Of a stretch of DNA of 64,000 nt, positions 41,017 to 49,440 are shown piece after piece. The stretch lies in contig NZ_JAJOMB010000029.1 in NCBI RefSeq assembly GCF_021129305.1, positions 1 to 64,000 on the forward strand, in the 5' to 3' direction. Below the pieces are notes generated by a model. That model was not told the origin of the DNA. It saw only the letters and a list, made by a program, of their open reading frames with translations, and did no database searches. Both the position numbers and the translations under genes were made by a program. This DNA is from Kineosporia babensis. Its GTDB lineage: Bacteria; Actinomycetota; Actinomycetes; Actinomycetales; Kineosporiaceae. Numbering within the stretch: the first letter of the stretch is position 1; each line of letters starts with the position of its first letter.

Positions 41017-41391
41017 TCAGTAGTTTCTGGGGTTGCCCGGCTGGTCGAAGCCGAACTCGTCCTCGTCGTCGTACCGGGGGTACGCGCCGGGGCGGGCGCC
41101 GCGCGACGGCCCGGTCGGGTCGTCCATCAGCGATTGTGCAGTCCGCGGGTCCATCGCCGGAGCACCTGAGGCGTCGACACCCAGGGCGGAACGCAACTCC
41201 TGCTCCCGCTCGGCCATGCCCTCGCGGATCACCTCGGCCACCTCGCGCAGGCCGTCGCCGAACGAGGCCAGCGAGGAGGAGAACGAGTCGCTCATCCCGG
41301 CCGGGGAGTACTGCTCGACCGTCTTGGTCAGCTTGCGCACCGCGTAGACGCCGGCACCGGCGCCGACCGCGATCCAGAAGAGCCTGGCCAT
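41017..41391 (-). CDS. Small membrane-associated protein (DUF6167-like)
   Basis: A 124-residue protein with an N-terminal hydrophobic segment (FWIAVGAGAGVYAVRKL), an amphipathic helical middle (LREVAEVIREGMAEREQELRSAL) and an acidic/aromatic tail (PRYDDEDEFGFDQPG). It resembles the small DUF6167-type proteins that sit beside a DUF948 gene next to alaS in other actinobacteria. Its function is unknown. It starts 8 bases after the DUF948 gene stop. Confidence 0.75.
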   Translation of the reverse strand: MARLFWIAVGAGAGVYAVRKLTKTVEQYSPAGMSDSFSSSLASFGDGLREVAEVIREGMAEREQELRSALGVDASGAPAMDPRTAQSLMDDPTGPSRGARPGAYPRYDDEDEFGFDQPGNPRNY

Positions 41392-41399
41392 CGTTCAGC

Positions 41400-41762
41400 T
41401 CACCTCCGCTTGCCGGCGGCCTTGCGGCCCCCGATCGCCTGACGCACGCCGTAGGTGAACGCGGCGACCTTGACCACGGGCGAGCCGAGCGTGGCCGCGA
41501 ACAGGGCGGTCAGCGCGGAGACGTTGGTGGACACCTGGGCCACGTTGTTCGTGATCGTGTCGACCTTGCCCAGCTGCTGGTTGGTCGAGGCCACGGTGGT
41601 GGTGACCTCGGACAGCAGCGGCAGGGCGCCGTCGGAGAGGCTGCGCACCGTGTTGCGCGTCTCGTCCAGCACCTTGCCCAGCTTGATCAGGGGGATCGCG
41701 ATCACGCCGACCAGGAGGACGAAGGCTATGGCTGCGATCAGCCCGGCGATGTCGCCCACCAT
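41400..41762 (-). CDS. DUF948 family membrane protein
   Basis: A 120-residue protein with one N-terminal transmembrane helix (about 5-25, IAGLIAAIAFVLLVGVIAI), followed by a long helix (LGKVLDETRNTVRSLSDGALPLLSEVTTTV...) and a basic end (GGRKAAGKRR). This layout is typical of DUF948 proteins. Its conserved place between rarA/rpsD-type genes and alaS suggests an envelope or general role, but no activity is known. Confidence 0.85.
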   Translation of the reverse strand: MVGDIAGLIAAIAFVLLVGVIAIPLIKLGKVLDETRNTVRSLSDGALPLLSEVTTTVASTNQQLGKVDTITNNVAQVSTNVSALTALFAATLGSPVVKVAAFTYGVRQAIGGRKAAGKRR

Positions 41763-41891
41763 GAGTTATCCCTTTCATCGCCCGCTGAGGATTCGCAGTC
41801 GGCGGGGAGCACGGAAAACCGGACAGATCCCGGCCGAACGGGGTTGACCCTATCGTGGACCGGCGGTACCGCCGTCCCGGTGGTTGCGCGA

Positions 41892-41914
41892 CACCCGTGT
41901 CCCGCGAACGGGTG
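41892..41914 (-). terminator. Hairpin after rarA
   Basis: CACCCGT (41892-41898) pairs with ACGGGTG (41908-41914) across nine bases, 7 bases after the rarA stop. There is no T-tract. Confidence 0.4.
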
Positions 41915-41921
41915 ACGGGGG

Positions 41922-43361
41922 TCAGCGCCGCCGGCCGCCTCCTCGCAGCATCGATCTCAGCCGGGCCAGACGTTCGGCCATACCCCGTTCTCCTCCCCGG
42001 TCGGTGGGCGCGTAGTACTCCCGGCCGGCCAGGTCGTCCGGCAGGTACTGCTGCGCCACCACCCCGTGCGGATGGTCGTGCGCGTACTTGTACCCCCGCC
42101 CGTGGCCGAGTTTCTTGGCCCCGGTGTAGTGCGCGTCGCGCAGATCGGGCGGCACCGGCCCGCCGAGCCCGGCCCGCACGTCCTGGGTGGCCGCGTTCAG
42201 CGCCATGTACGAGGCGTTCGACTTCGGCGCCATGGCCAGGTGCACGGTGGCCTGGGCCAGCACGATCCGGCCCTCGGGCATCCCGATCATCTGCACCGCC
42301 TGGGCCGCCGCCACCGCCACCTGCAGGGCGCTCGGGTCGGCCATCGCGATCTCCTCGGAGGCCGCGATCATCAGCCGCCGGGCGATGAACCGCGGATCCT
42401 CCCCGGCCTCGACCATCCGGGCCAGGTAGTGCAGCGCCGCGTCCACGTCGGACCCGCGGATGCTCTTGATCAGCGCACTGGTGATGTCGTAGTGCTGATC
42501 GCCCTCCCGGTCGTAGCGGACCATCGCCTTGTCCACGGCCTGCTCGACATCCGTCACCGTTATCTCGGGGATCTCGGCCACCTCGCCGTCGGCGTTGACC
42601 CGCTCCCGGCTGAGCGCACTGCCCGCGGCGGCCTCCAGCGAGGTCAGCGCCCGGCGGGCGTCTCCGGTGGCCAGCCGGACCAGGGCGGCCGCCGCCTCCT
42701 CGCCGAGCCGGACCGTGCCGTTCAGCCCGCGCTCGTCCTGCACCGCCCGCTGCAGCAGCGCCTCGATGTCCTGGTCCTCGAGCTGGCGCAGGGTCAGCAG
42801 CAGCGAGCGCGACAGCAGCGGCGAGATGATGCTGAACGAGGGGTTCTCGGTGGTGGCGGCCACCAGGATCACCCAGCGGTTCTCCACCCCCGGCAGCAGA
42901 CCGTCCTGCTGGGACTTGGTGAACCGGTGGATCTCGTCCAGGAAGAGAACGGTGCGGGTCTCGGACCGGTCGCGCAGCTCACGCGCCTCCTCCATCACCC
43001 GCCGCACGTCCTTCACTCCGGCCGTGACCGCCGACAGCTCGACGAACCGGCGGCCACCGGTGTTGGAGACGACGTGGGCAAGGGTGGTCTTCCCGGCACC
43101 GGGTGGACCCCAGAGAATGACGGACGCGGGGCCCGCCAGCCCGTCGGCACCCTCGGCAAGGCGGCGCAGAGGCGAACCAGGACCGAGCAGATGCCCCTGC
43201 CCCACCAGTTCGTCGAGTGCGCGGGGACGCATCCGCACCGCGAGCGGAGGACGGTCACCGGAACCGGCGTGGCCGAGGCTGCCGGGGCGGACAGGGTTGA
43301 ACGCCGCGGAGGCCCCAGGTTCGGGAGCCGCCGCGTTGTCGGAAGTGAACAGATCGGCCAT
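41922..43361 (-). CDS. rarA: Replication-associated recombination protein A (RarA/MgsA, clamp-loader-like AAA+ ATPase)
   Basis: A 479-residue protein from the ATG at 43361. The N-terminal ~35 residues are a linker. The AAA+ core has [16 protein letters not shown], Walker [14 protein letters not shown], Walker [21 protein letters not shown], sensor 1 AATTENPSF and sensor 2 [12 protein letters not shown]. The C-terminal tetramerisation region has [19 protein letters not shown] and [19 protein letters not shown]. It acts at stalled replication forks. It is followed by the DUF948 gene. Confidence 0.95.
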
Positions 43362-43483
43362 CGATCGCAGATTATCCGCCGCCACCGACAGAACCCGAAC
43401 GGCGGGAGCGGGTCCGGATGCCTCACGTCGATTCAGGCGACTCGAGCCAGTCCAGAACGGGGCCCTGGTTCAGGGTTGGGTCC

Positions 43484-43504
43484 GGTTCAGGGTTCAGGGT
43501 TCAG
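43484..43504. repeat. Three exact tandem heptamers GGTTCAG
   Basis: GGTTCAG is repeated three times without interruption, with an earlier copy at 43467-43473 and near-copies either side. The block lies just upstream of rarA on its strand. Confidence 0.7.
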
Positions 43505-43733
43505 GGCTGGGCCCGGCTCAGAACGAAGTCGGTTCAGAGTTGGCTGGTGCGGCGACCACGAACCTTGACCGGTTCCACGCCAGGCCATTCAGTCCAGCAG
43601 TGGGGGAACAAAGAGCGCTGGGGCAACACCAAGTTCACCCGGTACCGGATCCGGCCCGCGCAACCGGTCACCCGGTGAACGTTCGTGGCCGTCGCACCAG
43701 GTTCAGAAGCAGCCTGACTCGAAACCGGCCTGG

Positions 43734-43818
43734 CTCAGCACTCGGCCTAGATCAGCACTCGGCCCGGCTCAGCACTCGGCCCGGCTCAGTGCTCGGCCTG
43801 GCTCAGTGCTCGGCCTGG
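43734..43818. repeat. Five tandem copies of a 17-base repeat
   Basis: Units start at 43734, 43751, 43768, 43785 and 43802. The consensus is CTCAGCACTCGGCCCGG; the last two units share CTCAGTGCTCGGCCTGG. The block is directly downstream (minus strand) of the Gly/Tyr-repeat protein gene. Confidence 0.8.
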
Positions 43819-43929
43819 TTGAGAAACTGGGCCGCCCAGAGCGGACCGGTTCAGAACTGGCCAGGCTCGAACCGGCCCGGCTCGGAAGCAACCCTGACCC
43901 GACCCCGGCCAGGCTCAGACCGGTCTGGC

Positions 43930-44793
43930 TCAGAACCGGCCCTGCGACTCGTCCCGCCGCCGACCACGCGCGCCACGCCGGCCCTGCTCGCCTGCCCCGT
44001 CGTGCCCGTAAGGCCCGTCGTGCCCATGAGGCTGGCTGGGCTCGCCGGATTCGCTGTTTCGGGACACCCTGCCGTACCCACCGGACCTGGTGTTCTGGGG
44101 AGTCTCGCTGTACCCGCCAGGCTGGCCACTGCCGTACTCGCCAGGCCTGGTGTCCTCGCCAGTCACGTCGTACCCGCCACTTCCGTACTGCCCGCTGTAC
44201 TCACCGGACCTAGCGCCCTCGTCAGTCACGCCGTACCCGCCGGGCCCGCCACTTCCGTACGCCCTGCCGTACTCACCGGACCTGGCGCCCTCGTCAGTCG
44301 CGCCGTGCCCGCCGGGCCCGCCACTTCCGTACGGCCCGCCGTACTCACCGCGCTTGGCGTCCTCGTCAGTCACGTCGGACGCGCCAGGCTCGCTGCTTCC
44401 GTACGCCCTGCCGTACTCACCGGGCCTGGCGTTCTCGTAAGGCGTGCTGGACTCCCCCGGTTCGCCGGGCCCGTAAGACTCGTTGTCCCCGCTTTGCCCG
44501 GAAGGCCTGTTGTCCGCCTCAGGCCGAACACCGTCGTCACCTCGGCCGCGCTGGTCCGGCCGAACGTTCTCATCGGGCCGGGTGCGCTGATCAACTCGCC
44601 CGCGCCCGTCGGGCCGGGTGTTCTCGTCACGCCGGTTGTTCAGGAGCCACTCGATCCCGAACGAGAGCCCGCCCGCGACCACCCCGAGGACCAGGCCGGG
44701 AACGATGCCGTTGCCGAGCAGCAGGTTGACCACCACCACGAGGACCAGGACGGCCACCGCGACGATCAGGCAGCGACGCAGCCGCGCGCTCAC
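43930..44793 (-). CDS. Two-helix membrane protein with Tyr/Gly-rich 24-residue tandem repeats
   Basis: A 287-residue protein from a GTG with AGGAG 7 bases upstream. Two closely spaced hydrophobic helices (about 9-27 and 30-51) form a hairpin. A charged Arg/Asp/Pro-rich linker (to about 100) follows, then tandem repeats at 122-240 of the type ARSGEYGRAYGSGGPGGYG followed by VTDEG. The end is basic (RRGARGRRRDESQGRF). Both flanks of the hairpin are basic, so the tail is probably cytoplasmic. I know no family for it. It is the last of four adjacent genes with hairpin plus Gly-rich tail. Confidence 0.75.
   Translation of the reverse strand: MSARLRRCLIVAVAVLVLVVVVNLLLGNGIVPGLVLGVVAGGLSFGIEWLLNNRRDENTRPDGRGRVDQRTRPDENVRPDQRGRGDDGVRPEADNRPSGQSGDNESYGPGEPGESSTPYENARPGEYGRAYGSSEPGASDVTDEDAKRGEYGGPYGSGGPGGHGATDEGARSGEYGRAYGSGGPGGYGVTDEGARSGEYSGQYGSGGYDVTGEDTRPGEYGSGQPGGYSETPQNTRSGGYGRVSRNSESGEPSQPHGHDGPYGHDGAGEQGRRGARGRRRDESQGRF
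44092..44430 (-). repeat. Coding tandem repeats, mostly 72 bases per unit
   Basis: The codons for residues 122-234 of the preceding gene form repeats: three full 24-codon units (122-145, 146-169, 170-193), then shortened units of about 21 and 20 codons. Conserved positions are GEYG, YGSG, PGG and TDE. Units 3 and 4 are most alike, suggesting recent duplication. Confidence 0.75.
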
Positions 44794-44957
44794 CGCGAAC
44801 TCCTGGGGCAGACGTGTCTCATGAGCATCACCCTAGAGGCCCGAAGAGGGGACAGTGCGAGCAGTCGCCGCCACCCCGAACGGTGCGGTCACCCAGTCAG
44901 GCGACCACACCTTGGGGGTAACTCCCGGCCCCTAGGGGCTGGGGGACCTCAGTTGAA

Positions 44958-45224
44958 TTACTCGCCGCCGCCCCCACCGCTGTCGCCGCCACCATCCCAA
45001 CCGCCGTCGCTGTCGGAACCACCGTTACCGCCGTTGGCGGTGGACGGGTTGCCGCGCCGGGAGGACCTGCGGGCCGACGGGAAGACCGTGAGCCCGAGCA
45101 GGTAGGCGGCGATCCCCACCACCATGGCCACGCCTACATGCACGCCGGCAGCTACGGCGGCGATTCCGACCGCCAGAGCGAGGATGAACGGGACCGGGCT
45201 GTTCCTGCGTCGTGTGCGAGCCAT
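44958..45224 (-). CDS. Small two-helix membrane protein with Gly-rich tail
   Basis: An 88-residue protein from an ATG preceded by AGGAGGAG. The N-terminus is basic (ARTRRRN). Two helices with almost no loop (about 11-29 and 32-49) are followed by a basic patch (SARRSSRRGN) and an acidic Gly-rich tail (GGNGGSDSDGGWDGGGDSGG). Charge distribution places both ends in the cytoplasm. I do not recognise the family. It has the same layout as the genes on each side. Confidence 0.75.
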   Translation of the reverse strand: MARTRRRNSPVPFILALAVGIAAVAAGVHVGVAMVVGIAAYLLGLTVFPSARRSSRRGNPSTANGGNGGSDSDGGWDGGGDSGGGGGE

Positions 45225-45324
45225 CTCTACTCCTCCTGAGCGCCGTCGGGCTTCCTGCCCGGTTTCTCTCTACCTCTACTGAGATGCAGAGGGGATCGAG
45301 AAAGTTCGGCGCAATCAGAACGAA

Positions 45325-45720
45325 TTACCAGGAACCGCCGCCCCCACCGCCGTCTCCTCCCCCACCGCTGCTGCCACCGGCGTCGCCACCCGAGCTGTGC
45401 CCACCACCGCTGGAACTGTGGCCGCCCCCGCCGTCGTACCCACCGACGTCCCCAGTTGTAGTGCTGGCGATCCCCGTACTGCCCGTGACCCCGGTAGAAC
45501 CCGAGCTTCCCCGCGAACCCGACGACCGACGTCCGCCGGTGGGCCCAGGGGCGCGAGTGGACTGCCGCTCCCAGATCGAGCCGACCACGAACGCGCTCAC
45601 GAAGGCGACCGCCGTGATCAGCACCGCCACTTCGGGCTCGGCGCCGACCACCACGCTGGTCAGGCCGGCCAGGACGGCGAAGATCACTTCTAGGATCAGC
45701 ACCTGCGTCTTACGGTCCAT
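45325..45720 (-). CDS. Two-helix membrane protein with long Gly/Ser-rich tail
   Basis: A 131-residue protein from an ATG preceded by GAGGGGGAG. Helix 1 is about 7-25 (LILEVIFAVLAGLTSVVVG) and helix 2 about 31-49 (AVLITAVAFVSAFVVGSIW). A basic stretch with RRSSGSR follows, then about 65 residues of Gly/Ser/Thr/His low complexity ending GGGGGGSW. No enzyme motif is present and I do not recognise the family. It is third in transcription-order relation to the cluster's downstream genes and shares their layout. Confidence 0.72.
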   Translation of the reverse strand: MDRKTQVLILEVIFAVLAGLTSVVVGAEPEVAVLITAVAFVSAFVVGSIWERQSTRAPGPTGGRRSSGSRGSSGSTGVTGSTGIASTTTGDVGGYDGGGGHSSSGGGHSSGGDAGGSSGGGGDGGGGGGSW

Positions 45721-45799
45721 CGCTCCCCCTCTGCCGAGAACTGCCCAAAGAACCTACGGGCGCAGTACGCGTTCCGATCCCCCAAGGGCAGCACCGAGG

Positions 45800-45843
45800 C
45801 AGCAAAGCCAGAAAGTCCCGGCCCGCATTGTGCGGGCCGGGAC
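45800..45843 (-). terminator. Rho-independent-type terminator within the Gly-rich cluster
   Basis: GTCCCGGCCCGC (45815-45826) pairs perfectly with GCGGGCCGGGAC (45832-45843) around ATTGT and is followed on the minus strand by TTTCTGGCTTT. It starts 14 bases after the stop of the first Gly-rich-cluster gene, so that gene is probably transcribed separately from the next. Confidence 0.85.
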
Positions 45844-45857
45844 CTCATCGATCCTGA

Positions 45858-46178
45858 TCAGTTGCTGGAGCCCCCTCCGTCGGCGCCCCCGCTCAGGCCG
45901 TCGGAGTACACCGGGACATTGTGGATCACCCCGTTTCCCGGCTGGTACATCTGATCCCGACGGCTACCGGCCGCCGGGGATCCCGGCCGGGCCACCCGAC
46001 GCGACGGTCCGCGGCCGGCCGACCGGTCCCGGCACAGGATCGCCCCGCCCATCAGCACTGCGGTTCCCACCAGACCGGGCAGCAGTTCCCCACCGGCCGC
46101 GCACCAGGCCCAGACCGCCAGCGCGCCGACCAGACCGAAGCCCAGCACCCGCAGCGCCCACTTCCGGATCGTGTTCAT
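45858..46178 (-). CDS. Small two-helix membrane protein with Gly-containing C-terminus
   Basis: A 106-residue protein from the ATG at 46178 (GGGGGT just upstream; a GTG four codons earlier is possible). Two helices (about 7-24 and 31-47, with a CAAGGE turn) are followed by a basic segment (RDRSAGRGPSRRVARPGS) and a tail ending LSGGADGGGSSN. It is the first of the four similar genes in transcription order and lies about 140 bases after aspS, with its own terminator. The function is unknown. Confidence 0.7.
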   Translation of the reverse strand: MNTIRKWALRVLGFGLVGALAVWAWCAAGGELLPGLVGTAVLMGGAILCRDRSAGRGPSRRVARPGSPAAGSRRDQMYQPGNGVIHNVPVYSDGLSGGADGGGSSN

Positions 46179-46261
46179 GCCTACCCCCACTTCGTGAACC
46201 TGTGAGCCCCCTCACATCAGGATCGGGCAATGATCGCCCCCGGAAGAAGGGGCAAACGGGT

Positions 46262-46295
46262 GAGTCCGGCCCGCAACCATCTGCGAGCCGGACTC
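46262..46295 (-). terminator. Terminator hairpin after aspS
   Basis: GAGTCCGGC (46262-46270) pairs with GCCGGACTC (46287-46295). An inner CGCA/TGCG pairing extends the stem. It is 23 bases after the aspS stop, with TTTG about 12 bases further along the minus strand. Confidence 0.65.
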
Positions 46296-46317
46296 AACCG
46301 GGCTGTCTGGAGGTAAC

Positions 46318-48126
46318 TCAGGCCTTCGCGGCCGGCTCACCCTGATCAGCAGCGCCCTCGGCCTTCGGCTTCGACGGCACGAAGTCCACCCCGGCCTCCT
46401 TGCGCTGGGCCTTGGTGATCGGCGCCGGGGCGGCGGTCAGCGGGTCGTAGCCGCCGCCGCTCTTCGGGAAGGCGATCACCTCACGCAGCGACTCGGCACC
46501 GGCCAGCAGCATCACGATCCGGTCCCAGCCGAAGGCGATACCGCCGTGCGGCGGGGCGCCGAACTTGAAGGCGTCGAGCAGGAAGCCGAACTTCTCCTGC
46601 GCGTCCTCCTCGCTCAGGCCCATCATCTTGAACACCCGCTCCTGCACCGAGCGCTGGTGGATACGGATCGACCCACCGCCGATCTCGTTGCCGTTGCAGA
46701 CGATGTCGTAGGCGTAGGCCAGGGCGTTGCCCGGGTCGGACTCGAACTTCTCGATCCACTCCGGCTTGGGCGAGGTGAAGGCGTGGTGCACGGCCGTCCA
46801 GGCGCCCGAGCCGACCGCCACGTCACCGCTGGCCACCGCGGCCGAGGCCGGCTCGAACAGCGGGGCGTCGACGATCCAGACGAACTCCCAGCGGTTCTCG
46901 TCGATCAGGCCGCAGCGCTTGCCGATCTCCAGCCGGGCGGCGCCGAGCAGGGCCCGGGCCTCGGAGGTGATGCCGGCGCCGAAGAAGACGCAGTCGCCCG
47001 GCTGGGCGCCGACCGCCTCGGCCAGGCCCGCGCGCTCGGCCTCGGAGATGTTCTTGGCCACCGGGCCGGACAGCGTGCCGTCCTCGGCGATCAGCACGTA
47101 GGCCAGACCGCGGGCGCCGCGCTGCTTGGCCCACTCCTGCCAGGCGTCCAGCTGACGGCGGGGCTGCGAGCCGCCACCGGGCATCACGACCGCGCCCACG
47201 TACTCGGACTGGAACACCCGGAACGGCGTGCCGGCGAAGTACTTGGTCATGTCGACCAGCTCGTTGCCGAAGCGAAGGTCGGGCTTGTCCGAGCCGTAGC
47301 GGGCCATCGCGTCGGCGTAGGTCATCCGCGGGATCGGCGCGGTGATCTCGTGGCCGATCAGCTTCCACAGCGCGGTGACGATCTGCTCGCCGACCGCGAT
47401 CACGTCGTCCTGCTCGACGAACGACATCTCGATGTCGAGCTGGGTGAACTCGGGCTGGCGGTCGGCCCGGAAGTCCTCGTCGCGGTAGCAGCGGGCGATC
47501 TGGAAGTAGCGCTCCATCCCGCCGACCATGAGCAGCTGCTTGAACAGCTGCGGGCTCTGCGGCAGGGCGTACCAGGAACCCGGCTTCAGCCGGGCCGGCA
47601 CCACGAAGTCGCGGGCGCCCTCGGGGGTGGAACGGGTCAGGGTCGGCGTCTCGATCTCGACGAAGTCCTGGTCCAGCAGCACGTTGCGGGCGGCCTGGTT
47701 GACCTTGCTGCGCAGCCGGATGGCCGCGGCCGGGCCGCTGCGGCGCAGGTCGAGGTAGCGGTACTTGAGCCGGGTCTCCTCGCCGACCTCGATGTGGTCG
47801 TCGAGCTGGAACGGCAGCGGGGCGGACTCGTTGAGCACCTCGACCTGGCTGGCGATCACCTCGATCGCACCGGTGGCCAGGGCCGGGTTCTCGTTGCCCT
47901 CGGGCCGCGGCGAGACCTCACCGGTGACCCGCAGGCAGAACTCCGAGCGCAGGCCGTGGGCCACGGACTCGTCGCGGACGACCACCTGGGCCACGCCGGA
48001 GGCATCCCGCAGGTCGACGAACGCCACCCCGCCGTGATCCCGGCGGGAGGCGACCCATCCGGTGAGGATGACGGTTTCGCCGACGTGGCCGGACCGCAGG
48101 GATCCGGCCGTATGGGTGCGCAGCAC
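46318..48126 (-). CDS. aspS: Aspartyl-tRNA synthetase
   Basis: A 602-residue bacterial-type class IIb synthetase from the GTG at 48126 (GAGAGG 8 bases upstream). The anticodon-binding OB fold comes first ([31 protein letters not shown]). Motif 2 follows ([29 protein letters not shown]), then the bacterial GAD insertion and motif 3 ([27 protein letters not shown]). A ~30-residue charged tail is added at the C-terminus. hisS, often adjacent in other actinobacteria, is not upstream here; a divergent radical SAM gene is. Confidence 0.97.
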
Positions 48127-48240
48127 GGTGAGGCCTCTCGAAAGTAAGTCTGATCCTGATTGGACGCACGCGATTCTACGGACGCACGCGGCCGGGTTCA
48201 CGCGGGTTACCGCCCGCGCGCGCCGCGCTTGCTCTTTGCT

Positions 48241-48256
48241 TCGAACATATGTTCGA
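48241..48256. promoter_or_regulatory. Perfect LexA (SOS) box
   Basis: TCGAACATATGTTCGA is a perfect 16-base palindrome identical to the actinobacterial LexA consensus TCGAAC-N4-GTTCGA. It lies 8 bases before the ATG of the radical SAM gene, so LexA binding would block its transcription. The divergent aspS start is about 115 bases away. Confidence 0.9.
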
Positions 48257-48264
48257 ATGCGGGC

Positions 48265-49440
48265 ATGCGCTGGGACGGACAGCGGGTCGGCGGTGCCGTC
48301 CCCGGACCGATCGGAGGGACCGGTCCGGGGGCGGCTCCGGCGCTGCCCGACGCTTCAGCGCTACCTGGCCTGGACGCTCCGGCAATGCGGGCGATCAGTG
48401 GATTGCTGCGCACCGTCACCACGCCGGAGTTCACGGGCATCACGTTCCACGAGGTGGCCGCCCGCAGCGCGCTGAACCAGGTTCCGCCCGGCTCACCCAT
48501 GCCGTTCCGGTACACGCTCAACCCCTATCGCGGGTGCTCTCATGCCTGCGTGTACTGCTTCGCCCGAGGCACGCACTCCTACCTGGAGCTGGACACCGGG
48601 GCCGGGTTCGACAGCGAGATCGTGGTCAAGCTCAACCTGGCCGAGGTGCTGCGGCGCGAGCTGGCCCGGCCGTCCTGGTCGCGCGAGCACGTGGCCATGG
48701 GCACCAACACCGATCCGTACCAGCGCGCCGAGGGCCGCTACCGGCTGATGCCCGGGGTGATCCGGGCGCTGGCCGAGTCGGGCACCCCGTTCTCCATCCT
48801 GACCAAGGGCGGTCTGCTGCGCCGCGATCTGCCGCTGCTGCAGGAGGTCTCGGCCGCGGTGCCGGTCGGGCTGGGCCTGTCCATCGCGATCTGGGACGAG
48901 TCGCTGCACCGCAGTCTGGAACCGGGCACTCCCAGTCCCAGGGCCCGGCTGGAAGTGGTCCGCGCCGCCCGGGCCGCCGGGCTGCCGTGCGGGGTGTTCC
49001 TGGCGCCGGTCCTGCCCTGGCTCACCGATTCCGAGGAGCATCTCGACGAGGCGATCGGCCGGCTGGCGGGGGCCGGAGCCACCGGAGTCACGGTGGTGCC
49101 GCTGCACCTTCGGCCCGGCGCCCGCGAGTGGTTCTTCACCTGGCTGCAGCGCGAGCACCCCAAGCTGGTCCGGCGCTATCGCGAGCTGTACGGCAAGGGT
49201 GCCTACGCGTCCAAGGAGTACCGCCAGTGGCTGGGCGGCCGGGTGCAGCCGTTGCTCCGCCGGCACGGGATCAGCAACAGCGGGCCCACCTCCGGCATCG
49301 ACCGGGCAACTTCGGCCGGCCGAGGCGCCGGTATGGACGGCATCCCGGGAGACCCCGAAAGCCGTTTTCCCACCGGCAGTCTGCCCGCCGCCGCAAACTC
49401 CTCCGGCACCCCGGCCCGCGAACAACTCACACTGCTGTAG
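48265..49440 (+). CDS. Rv2578c-family radical SAM protein, LexA-controlled
   Basis: A 391-residue SPL-like radical SAM protein from the ATG at 48265; the frame runs further upstream but would cross the LexA box. The cluster-binding motif is Cys91-x3-Cys95-x2-Cys98 ([17 protein letters not shown]), followed by [18 protein letters not shown] and the barrel strands. The C-terminal ~60 residues are low complexity. The family is related to spore photoproduct lyase-type enzymes but its substrate is unknown. A perfect SOS box implies induction by DNA damage. As I recall, the mycobacterial homologue Rv2578c is in the LexA regulon. A leaderless mRNA is likely. Confidence 0.9.

What the first reader, a model, noticed from the sequence alone, without database searches (positions are those of the whole stretch)
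43930..46178. Four consecutive genes, each a two-helix membrane hairpin with a glycine-rich cytoplasmic tail
Four same-strand genes (43930-44793, 44958-45224, 45325-45720, 45858-46178) lie between rarA and aspS. Each encodes two adjacent transmembrane helices with a very short loop, a basic patch, then a Gly-rich low-complexity tail. Good ribosome sites precede at least three. Charge placement puts both ends inside the cell. They share no obvious residue-level identity but a common architecture, suggesting an ancient paralogous set. I know of no described system with this make-up. A membrane-tethered condensate or scaffold is one possible role; this is speculation.
Basis: partly seen in the sequence, partly recalled or inferred. 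Interest (0 to 1): 0.75.

Follow-up and report, generated by a model that had tools for sequence, protein, structure and literature searches.

The report
Genus-restricted small membrane-hairpin genes
Between two housekeeping genes of an actinobacterium lie small, fast-changing genes for two-helix membrane proteins with floppy tails; they look real and were found only in this genus, but they do not look like one set of duplicates and their role is unknown.

Summary
Confirmed: four minus-strand ORFs between aspS and rarA, each a predicted two-helix hairpin followed by a polar tail. The shared design is uneven. P1 (43930-44793) has a 62-residue hairpin core, single copy beside rarA in 6 of 6 genomes of the window's genus; the other five end at 61-75 aa without a Gly-rich tail, so its 225-aa tail is a species-specific extension with 24-aa repeats. 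P2 and P3 belong to a hairpin + Gly/Ser/Asp-tail class found in 6 of 6, one or two copies (7 sequences, all ending in five or more Gly plus D, E, SW or SY). P4 is an orphan with a weakly Gly-rich tail. Profile comparison hints at kinship of P2 with P3-like groups, but not of all four. No known family reaches its cut-off. New: in 6 of 6, P1 follows a leaderless-type 8-14-codon uORF whose TGA overlaps P1's start. None of 37 aspS-rarA intervals outside the genus holds a two-helix ORF. Best reading: a genus-restricted, repeat-prone locus of small membrane proteins whose Gly tails probably act as flexible cytoplasmic tethers (inferred, untested).

The parts
44608..44793 (-). P1 core: 62-aa two-helix hairpin (NLxxGNGxxxG); single copy beside rarA in 6 of 6 genomes of the genus
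43930..44607 (-). P1 tail: 225-aa low-complexity extension, partly 24-aa (72-bp) repeats; absent from the 5 orthologues
44790..44822 (-). uORF MRHVCPRSSR*, its TGA overlapping P1's GTG start (GTGA); same layout in 6 of 6 genomes
44830..44835 (-). -10-like TAGGGT 7 nt before the uORF ATG (leaderless-type spacing); no -35 shown
   Evidence: consensus scan found no full sigma-70 site
44958..45224 (-). P2: 88-aa hairpin + Gly/Ser/Asp tail ending GGGGGE; relatives at the same place in G003 and G004
45325..45720 (-). P3: 131-aa hairpin + Gly/Ser tail ending DGGGGGGSW; orthologue in K. rhizophila ends DGGGGGGSY
45858..46178 (-). P4: 106-aa hairpin with a weakly Gly-rich tail; no clear relative in 12 other family genomes
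45812..45846 (-). strong stem-loop after P4 (terminator-like but with a poor T-run), separating P4 from P3
   Evidence: z -5.1; not listed by the rule
46257..46300 (-). strong stem-loop after aspS (terminator-like but with a poor T-run), before P4
   Evidence: z -3.8; not listed by the rule
43369..43374 (-). TAATCT -10-like box just upstream of the conserved rarA ATG (43361); present in 6 of 6 genomes
43726..43818 (-). 17-bp tandem repeats in the P1-rarA spacer

Best explanation
The aspS-rarA interval of this genus is a repeat-prone locus carrying small two-helix membrane proteins of at least two kinds. (1) P1 core: a ~61-residue hairpin, probably translated by termination-reinitiation from a short leaderless uORF and placed just upstream of a separate, probably leaderless rarA. 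(2) One or two hairpins per genome (P2, P3 and relatives) with their own ribosome sites and a disordered Gly/Ser/Asp tail ending in oligoglycine plus a terminal acid or aromatic residue. Most likely mechanism: N-in/C-in hairpins pack in the membrane through small residues and display the tail in the cytoplasm as a flexible, weakly acidic tether; composition and C-terminal tip are kept while sequence drifts. P1 has recently gained a long tail in this species. Shown: gene content, conservation, uORF layout, hairpin prediction, tail composition. Inferred: topology, leaderless start, coupling, helix packing, tether role.
For: Interval read in the window and 5 sister genomes: P1 core and at least one Gly-tailed hairpin in 6 of 6. 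P1 core in 6 of 13 family genomes, all of one genus. The Gly-tailed hairpin profile finds this locus in 6 of 6 (7 matches, E 9.1e-16 or better); the next match is 0.007. No two-helix ORF in 37 of 37 other-genus intervals and 6 of 6 family intervals, by a rule that recovers 13 of 16 known genes. dN < dS for the P2 group (3 pairs, ratio about 0.3-0.5), X (0.13/0.56) and P3 (0.51/1.12). Five or more terminal Gly plus D/E/SW/SY in 7 of 7. Coupled uORF in 6 of 6 P1 genes against 0 of 226 control ORFs. Hairpin + low-confidence tail in models.
Against: P1 core shows little purifying selection: dN is often close to dS and exceeds it in G000-G003 (0.52/0.43). P1 repeat units vary about equally at the three codon positions (85, 80, 72), so nothing shows the tail is selected as protein. 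The promoter scan found no full sigma-70 site in 43300-46500. The rule used misses 3 of 16 known genes, among them the X hairpin of G002, whose second helix is weak. No expression data. The same tail ending occurs on unrelated proteins, so the tail alone says little about function.
Confidence: 0.45

Rival explanations
1. One reading: an ancient paralogous set of four hairpins whose Gly-rich tails build a membrane-tethered condensate or scaffold.
For: Shared topology at one locus; tails modelled with low confidence; P2, P3 and X share a tail type, and P2 scores slightly above between-group reversed controls with X, Y and P3.
Against: P1 and P4 scores stay within reversed controls. P1 orthologues lack a Gly-rich tail in 5 of 5 and P4's is weak. 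Expression signals differ.
Confidence: 0.1
2. Small cell-envelope or division assembly factors, like the MreB-associated actinobacterial protein SCO2097, recruiting cytoplasmic partners through the tail.
For: P2 and P3 give weak matches to NF058603 SCO2097_fam (16.3 and 13.5 bits); P2 gives 20.2 bits to DUF2530. [quoted passage not shown]
Against: Cut-offs are 110 and 25.5 bits; weak scores of this size arose for many membrane families in the same scans. No division or wall gene among the neighbours that were scanned.
Confidence: 0.2
3. Products of a repeat-expanding spacer: young or neutral ORFs with no settled function, kept open by high GC.
For: Tandem repeats in spacers of G000, G004 and G002; P4 orphan; P1 tail without codon-position bias; long ORFs also run antisense here.
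Against: Syntenic presence in 6 of 6, dN<dS in P2/P3/X, conserved C-terminal tips, ribosome sites and a conserved uORF layout. Fits P4 and the P1 tail best.
Confidence: 0.17
4. Membrane-disrupting small proteins (holin- or toxin-like).
For: Two-helix size and topology; one weak match of P1 to a holin family (phrog_9752, E 0.023).
Against: Nothing in PADLOC; no lysis or antitoxin partner among the neighbours scanned; P1 core and a tailed hairpin are present in 6 of 6 genus members at a housekeeping locus.
Confidence: 0.06
5. Membrane recruiter of RarA: the Gly-rich tail imitates the SSB linker and tip that RarA-type proteins bind (that binding is recalled, not looked up).
For: Adjacency to rarA; one SSB of this genome has a Gly-rich linker (L210).
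Against: That SSB ends EEPPF; none of the 7 hairpin tails has such a tip; rarA has its own -10-like box and follows aspS without two-helix ORFs in 37 of 37 other-genus intervals.
Confidence: 0.05

Closest known systems
Coupled small ORFs on leaderless mycobacterial transcripts (Shell et al. 2015, PMC4633059)
   Same: Short ORF with RTG at the mRNA 5' end and TGA overlapping the next start (RTGA); layout can be kept while the peptide is not (abstract and section 12 read; layout here in 6 of 6)
   Different: The downstream gene is an undescribed hairpin gene; the transcript start is inferred from -10 spacing, not mapped
SCO2097 family (NF058603)
   Same: Small actinobacterial protein; weak match to P2 and P3
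   Different: 16.3 and 13.5 bits against a cut-off of 110
DUF2530 (PF10745)
   Same: Weak match to P2 over residues 13-65 (E 7e-4)
   Different: 20.2 bits against a cut-off of 25.5; no match listed for the four P2/P3-class relatives scanned
Gly-rich C-terminal tails on other actinobacterial proteins
   Same: Same oligoglycine-acid ending on a 246-aa protein (GPP34-like, recalled), a penicillin-binding-like protein (recalled), a multi-helix membrane protein and a one-helix protein
   Different: The carriers do not look like the hairpins; the tail looks convergent (inference)

Membership tests
   hhalign: P1 and P4 within reversed controls; P2 with X, Y and P3 (24.8, 22.6, 22.2) just above the best between-group reversed score (21.2) but below self-reversed scores (up to 32.6)
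   P1 orthologues 5 of 5 without a Gly-rich tail; P4 tail 21% Gly
SCO2097 family (NF058603) | Score above curated cut-off | tested here: not met
   16.3 (P2) and 13.5 (P3) against 110 bits
DUF2530 | Score above Pfam gathering score | tested here: not met
   20.2 against 25.5 bits
Leaderless coupled small ORF | TGA of the short ORF overlaps the next start codon (RTGA) | tested here: met
   6 of 6 P1 genes; 0 of 10 other hairpin genes of the locus; 0 of 226 control ORFs under the full rule
Leaderless coupled small ORF | Transcript starts at the ATG | not testable with these tools
   TANNNT 6-7 nt before the ATG in 6 of 6; no TSS data
SSB-type acidic tip | C-terminal acidic residues followed by PPF or IPF (motif partly recalled) | tested here: not met
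   own SSB ends EEPPF; 7 hairpin tails end in D, E, SW or SY after glycines
Holin | Match to a holin family and a lysis neighbour | tested here: inconclusive
   P1 E 0.023 to phrog_9752 only; no lysis gene among neighbours scanned, but not every ORF was scanned

The most novel reading that the evidence does not exclude
The aspS-rarA interval of this genus is a nursery for membrane-hairpin genes: spacer repeats expand, new hairpins and disordered tails arise and turn over between species, and those kept converge on N-in/C-in anchors with an oligoglycine-tipped cytoplasmic tail, an undescribed kind of membrane tether.
Probability: 0.17. Interest if true: 0.55.

Novelty: new member of a known kind. 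Interest (0 to 1): 0.33.

Why it matters
It adds undescribed, genus-restricted small membrane protein families with a testable expression layout, and shows a tail present in one species only, partly built of in-frame repeats. If the tether reading holds, it is a simple natural system for asking what an oligoglycine-tipped disordered tail on a minimal membrane anchor does. It also warns that shared topology plus low-complexity tails is not evidence of shared descent.

Tried and rejected
Family libraries: Pfam and NCBIfam gave no hit over a cut-off for P1-P4; PHROGs and PADLOC show no cut-off, best E 0.023 and no match respectively. Pfam for eight relatives: none over cut-off. Rfam: 0 matches at gathering score in 41300-48300. 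PDB by sequence, P3 only: 4 matches, all kinesin constructs over the start of the tail, best E 0.0037.

A full-length P3 search of 58 genomes found only the own genome. That is a false negative: G001 has an orthologue. Gly-rich candidates probably crowd the first look, so most later searches used hairpins only.

Class-wide searches: P1 profile, 14 of 394 genomes at E<=0.01, one of them the own; Gly-tail hairpin profile, 26 of 394, one of them the own. Only 16 candidates per genome were scored, so sensitivity is limited. Of the 13 outside P1 matches I read one ORF (L071). Of the 25 outside matches I read 19 (minus-strand loci were first read on the wrong strand and re-read): two (L226, L227) are short frames ending in a hairpin-like pair of hydrophobic stretches, and none carries a Gly-rich tail after it. 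L071 scored well against P1 (76%, score 28.4), but that same profile had chosen it.

My first scan of six family intervals asked for GC3 of at least 0.85, which would have missed P1, P2 and P3; the first other-genus scan covered 23 of 37 loci. One search repeated both with a looser rule and a positive control.

The RarA/SSB-mimic idea fails on the tail tip. P4 and Y (same position in G003, G004) were tested as relatives and not supported. The P1 repeat was found nowhere else in the own genome. The sister-group place of G000 and G001 has low support (0.26), so I draw no order of gains and losses.

Literature: searches on small or two-helix membrane proteins with Gly-rich tails listed nothing that describes such a system (0, 49, 23 and 7 papers held enough terms; 0, 12, 10 and 7 were listed; titles and abstract starts only). 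Searches covered RarA with small membrane proteins and SCO2097; 49 and 85 leaderless coupling and orphan small proteins; 50 Kineosporia genomes. The library is open-access only, so absence is weak evidence.
Full report
What is there. Four ORFs lie on the minus strand between rarA and aspS, at the stated places: P1 287 aa, P2 88, P3 131, P4 106. All have two hydrophobic segments within the first ~50 residues. AlphaFold models of P3 and P1 show a helical hairpin with a low-confidence tail (mean pLDDT 55 and 51, alignments of two and three sequences, so modest models). GC by codon position follows the coding pattern in the P1 core (0.77/0.39/0.95), P2 (0.70/0.64/0.82) and P4 (0.73/0.61/0.86); in the Gly-rich P3 tail second-position GC exceeds third (0.66/0.87/0.71), as GGN codons would give.

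Is the grouping more than chance? From 464 kb of this genome (the window plus 20 stretches of 20 kb) my filter kept 400 coding-like ORFs; 6 have exactly two early membrane segments, and P1, P2 and P4 are three of them. P3 missed the filter (GC3 0.79). Of the six, only P2 passed the strict tail rule, at least 25 residues with at least 25% Gly. So the clustering of hairpins is unusual, while a Gly-rich tail is clear for P2 and P3 only.

Which organisms. The window's genus, as held and grouped by the tool (g1), has six genomes. So the claim is for g1, not for every strain called Kineosporia.

Comparison with relatives. The interval was read in the window and five sisters. From aspS to rarA: G000 P4-P3-P2-P1; G001 P3-like and P1 core; G002 and G005 an X hairpin and P1 core; G003 and G004 a Y hairpin, a P2-like hairpin and P1 core. 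P1 core is in 6 of 6 genus and 0 of 7 other family genomes. A profile of the Gly-tailed hairpins finds this locus in 6 of 6 and nothing comparable elsewhere in those genomes (best other E 0.007). The aspS-rarA neighbourhood is wider than the genus: 39 of 80 fetched loci carry both genes. With a rule that recovers 13 of the 16 hairpin genes known from the six genus genomes, 0 of 37 other-genus intervals and 0 of 6 family intervals contain a two-helix ORF; one family stretch did not reach rarA, one reached only part of it, and one of the 37 (L113) is the same place as one of the six.

P1. The core is 43-57% identical to its five relatives, with ten invariant positions, among them N23, L24, G27, N28, G29, G33 and G37. 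The relatives end at 61-75 aa, so the 225-aa tail is particular to this genome. It contains 72-bp repeats found nowhere else in the genome. Differences among five repeat units fall about equally on the three codon positions (85, 80, 72), so nothing shows selection on the tail as protein. Across 15 pairs of cores dN is often close to dS (one pair 0.52 against 0.43), so selection on the core is weak by this simple method on ~60 codons.

P1 expression signals. In 6 of 6 genomes a short ORF starts 6-7 nt after a TANNNT box, runs 8, 10 or 14 codons, and ends in a TGA that overlaps the P1 start. Lengths differ only by whole codons while the peptides differ (MRHVCPRSSR, MRHNSHKVRS, MRRTGTPR, MSHAKIGAQR, MGHVSNSDPAGPRS, MSREGTGVDR). 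G002 and G005 are near relatives, so the six are not fully independent. The same rule is met by 0 of 226 other ORFs in 400 kb of this genome, with every ATG or GTG of the first 30 codons allowed as start, and by 0 of 10 other hairpin genes of the locus, most of which have purine-rich ribosome sites instead. This matches the coupled leaderless small ORFs described in mycobacteria, where layout but not peptide may be conserved (PMC4633059, abstract and section 12); termination-reinitiation at such an overlap is reported for uPPE2-PPE2 (PMC11260477, passages). rarA has TAATCT 7-9 nt before its ATG in 6 of 6; in G002, G003 and G005 the P1 stop codon TAA is part of that box. Against this, a consensus scan for full sigma-70 sites (both hexamers) found none in 43300-46500.

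P2, P3 and their relatives. All 7 sequences end in at least five glycines followed by D, E, SW or SY, though tails differ in length and order. dN is below dS: P2 group 0.55/1.51, 0.67/1.28 and 0.35/1.09; X 0.13/0.56; P3 0.51/1.12; the Y pair 0.66/1.05 (tails included). In the own genome the ending GGGGG[DE] plus TAA or TGA occurs twice: P2 and a 246-aa protein that I recognise from memory as GPP34-like. In 58 relatives, own genome included, it occurs at 12 places in 9 genomes; the backwards control pattern gave 2. Of the 12, 8 end an ORF: 4 are hairpins of this locus and 4 are other proteins, so the tail recurs on other carriers. The other 4 gave no such ORF.

P4. It has no clear relative in 12 other family genomes (best outside E 0.0026, in a longer frame). 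It sits between two strong stem-loops, one after aspS and one after itself (z -3.8 and -5.1); G001 has one such stem-loop after aspS. I read the P4-P3 gap as a probable transcription boundary, but the T-runs are poor and the terminator rule lists neither.

Are they one family? Profile comparison of six hairpin groups gave scores of 8.7-24.8. P2-X (24.8), P2-Y (22.6) and P2-P3 (22.2) are slightly above the best between-group reversed control (21.2) but below self-reversed scores (up to 32.6); every pair with P1 or P4 is at 17.8 or less, within controls. Unrelated hairpins scored up to 13.1, apart from L071, which the P1 profile had itself picked (up to 28.4). So a distant link among P2, X and P3, perhaps Y, is possible and agrees with the shared tail; common descent of all four is not supported, though with such short hydrophobic sequences it is not excluded.

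Mechanism. The best-supported picture is small N-in/C-in anchors. In P2 and P3 they carry a disordered Gly/Ser/Asp tail whose composition and tip are kept. I infer a cytoplasmic tether or spacer; whether it recruits a partner, forms clusters or does little is open. The condensate idea has no direct support. Links to RarA and to SCO2097-like envelope factors each lack a defining feature; a holin role is not settled.

Repeats. Tandem repeats fill spacers upstream of P1 core in G004 and G002 and downstream of P1 in the window. This makes a repeat-prone locus that gains tails and small ORFs plausible and is the basis of the novel case.

Noticed in passing
window 43361-43374 and 5 sister genomes: rarA looks leaderless: TAATCT 7-9 nt before a conserved ATG that lies 8 codons inside the ORF called from GTG; in three genomes the stop codon of P1 is part of the box.
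   Followed up: partly
L057 781-1521 (own genome C8): A 246-aa protein (GPP34-like, recalled) with a C-terminal tail GGDGGGDGGGGGD like that of the hairpins.
   Followed up: no
L075 (G003 C3:212683-212703): A multi-helix membrane protein of 275 aa with a long Gly/Ser tail ending in nine glycines and D; the tail type recurs on other proteins.
   Followed up: no
L034 7338-7604; L035 3245-3521: Spacer tandem repeats of 17 bp and 22 bp upstream of P1 core in two sister genomes, with consensus units different from those of the window.
   Followed up: partly
L038 (G011, interval after aspS): A 382-aa transposase-like ORF (IS110-like, recalled) lies after aspS in a genome of another genus of the family.
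   Followed up: no
L226 and L227: Two short frames in other families of the class end in a hairpin-like pair of hydrophobic stretches without a Gly-rich tail and match the tailed-hairpin profile weakly (E about 0.005).
   Followed up: no
window 42529-45105 +: An 858-codon antisense ORF runs through much of the region, which shows that open frames here are weak evidence by themselves.
   Followed up: no
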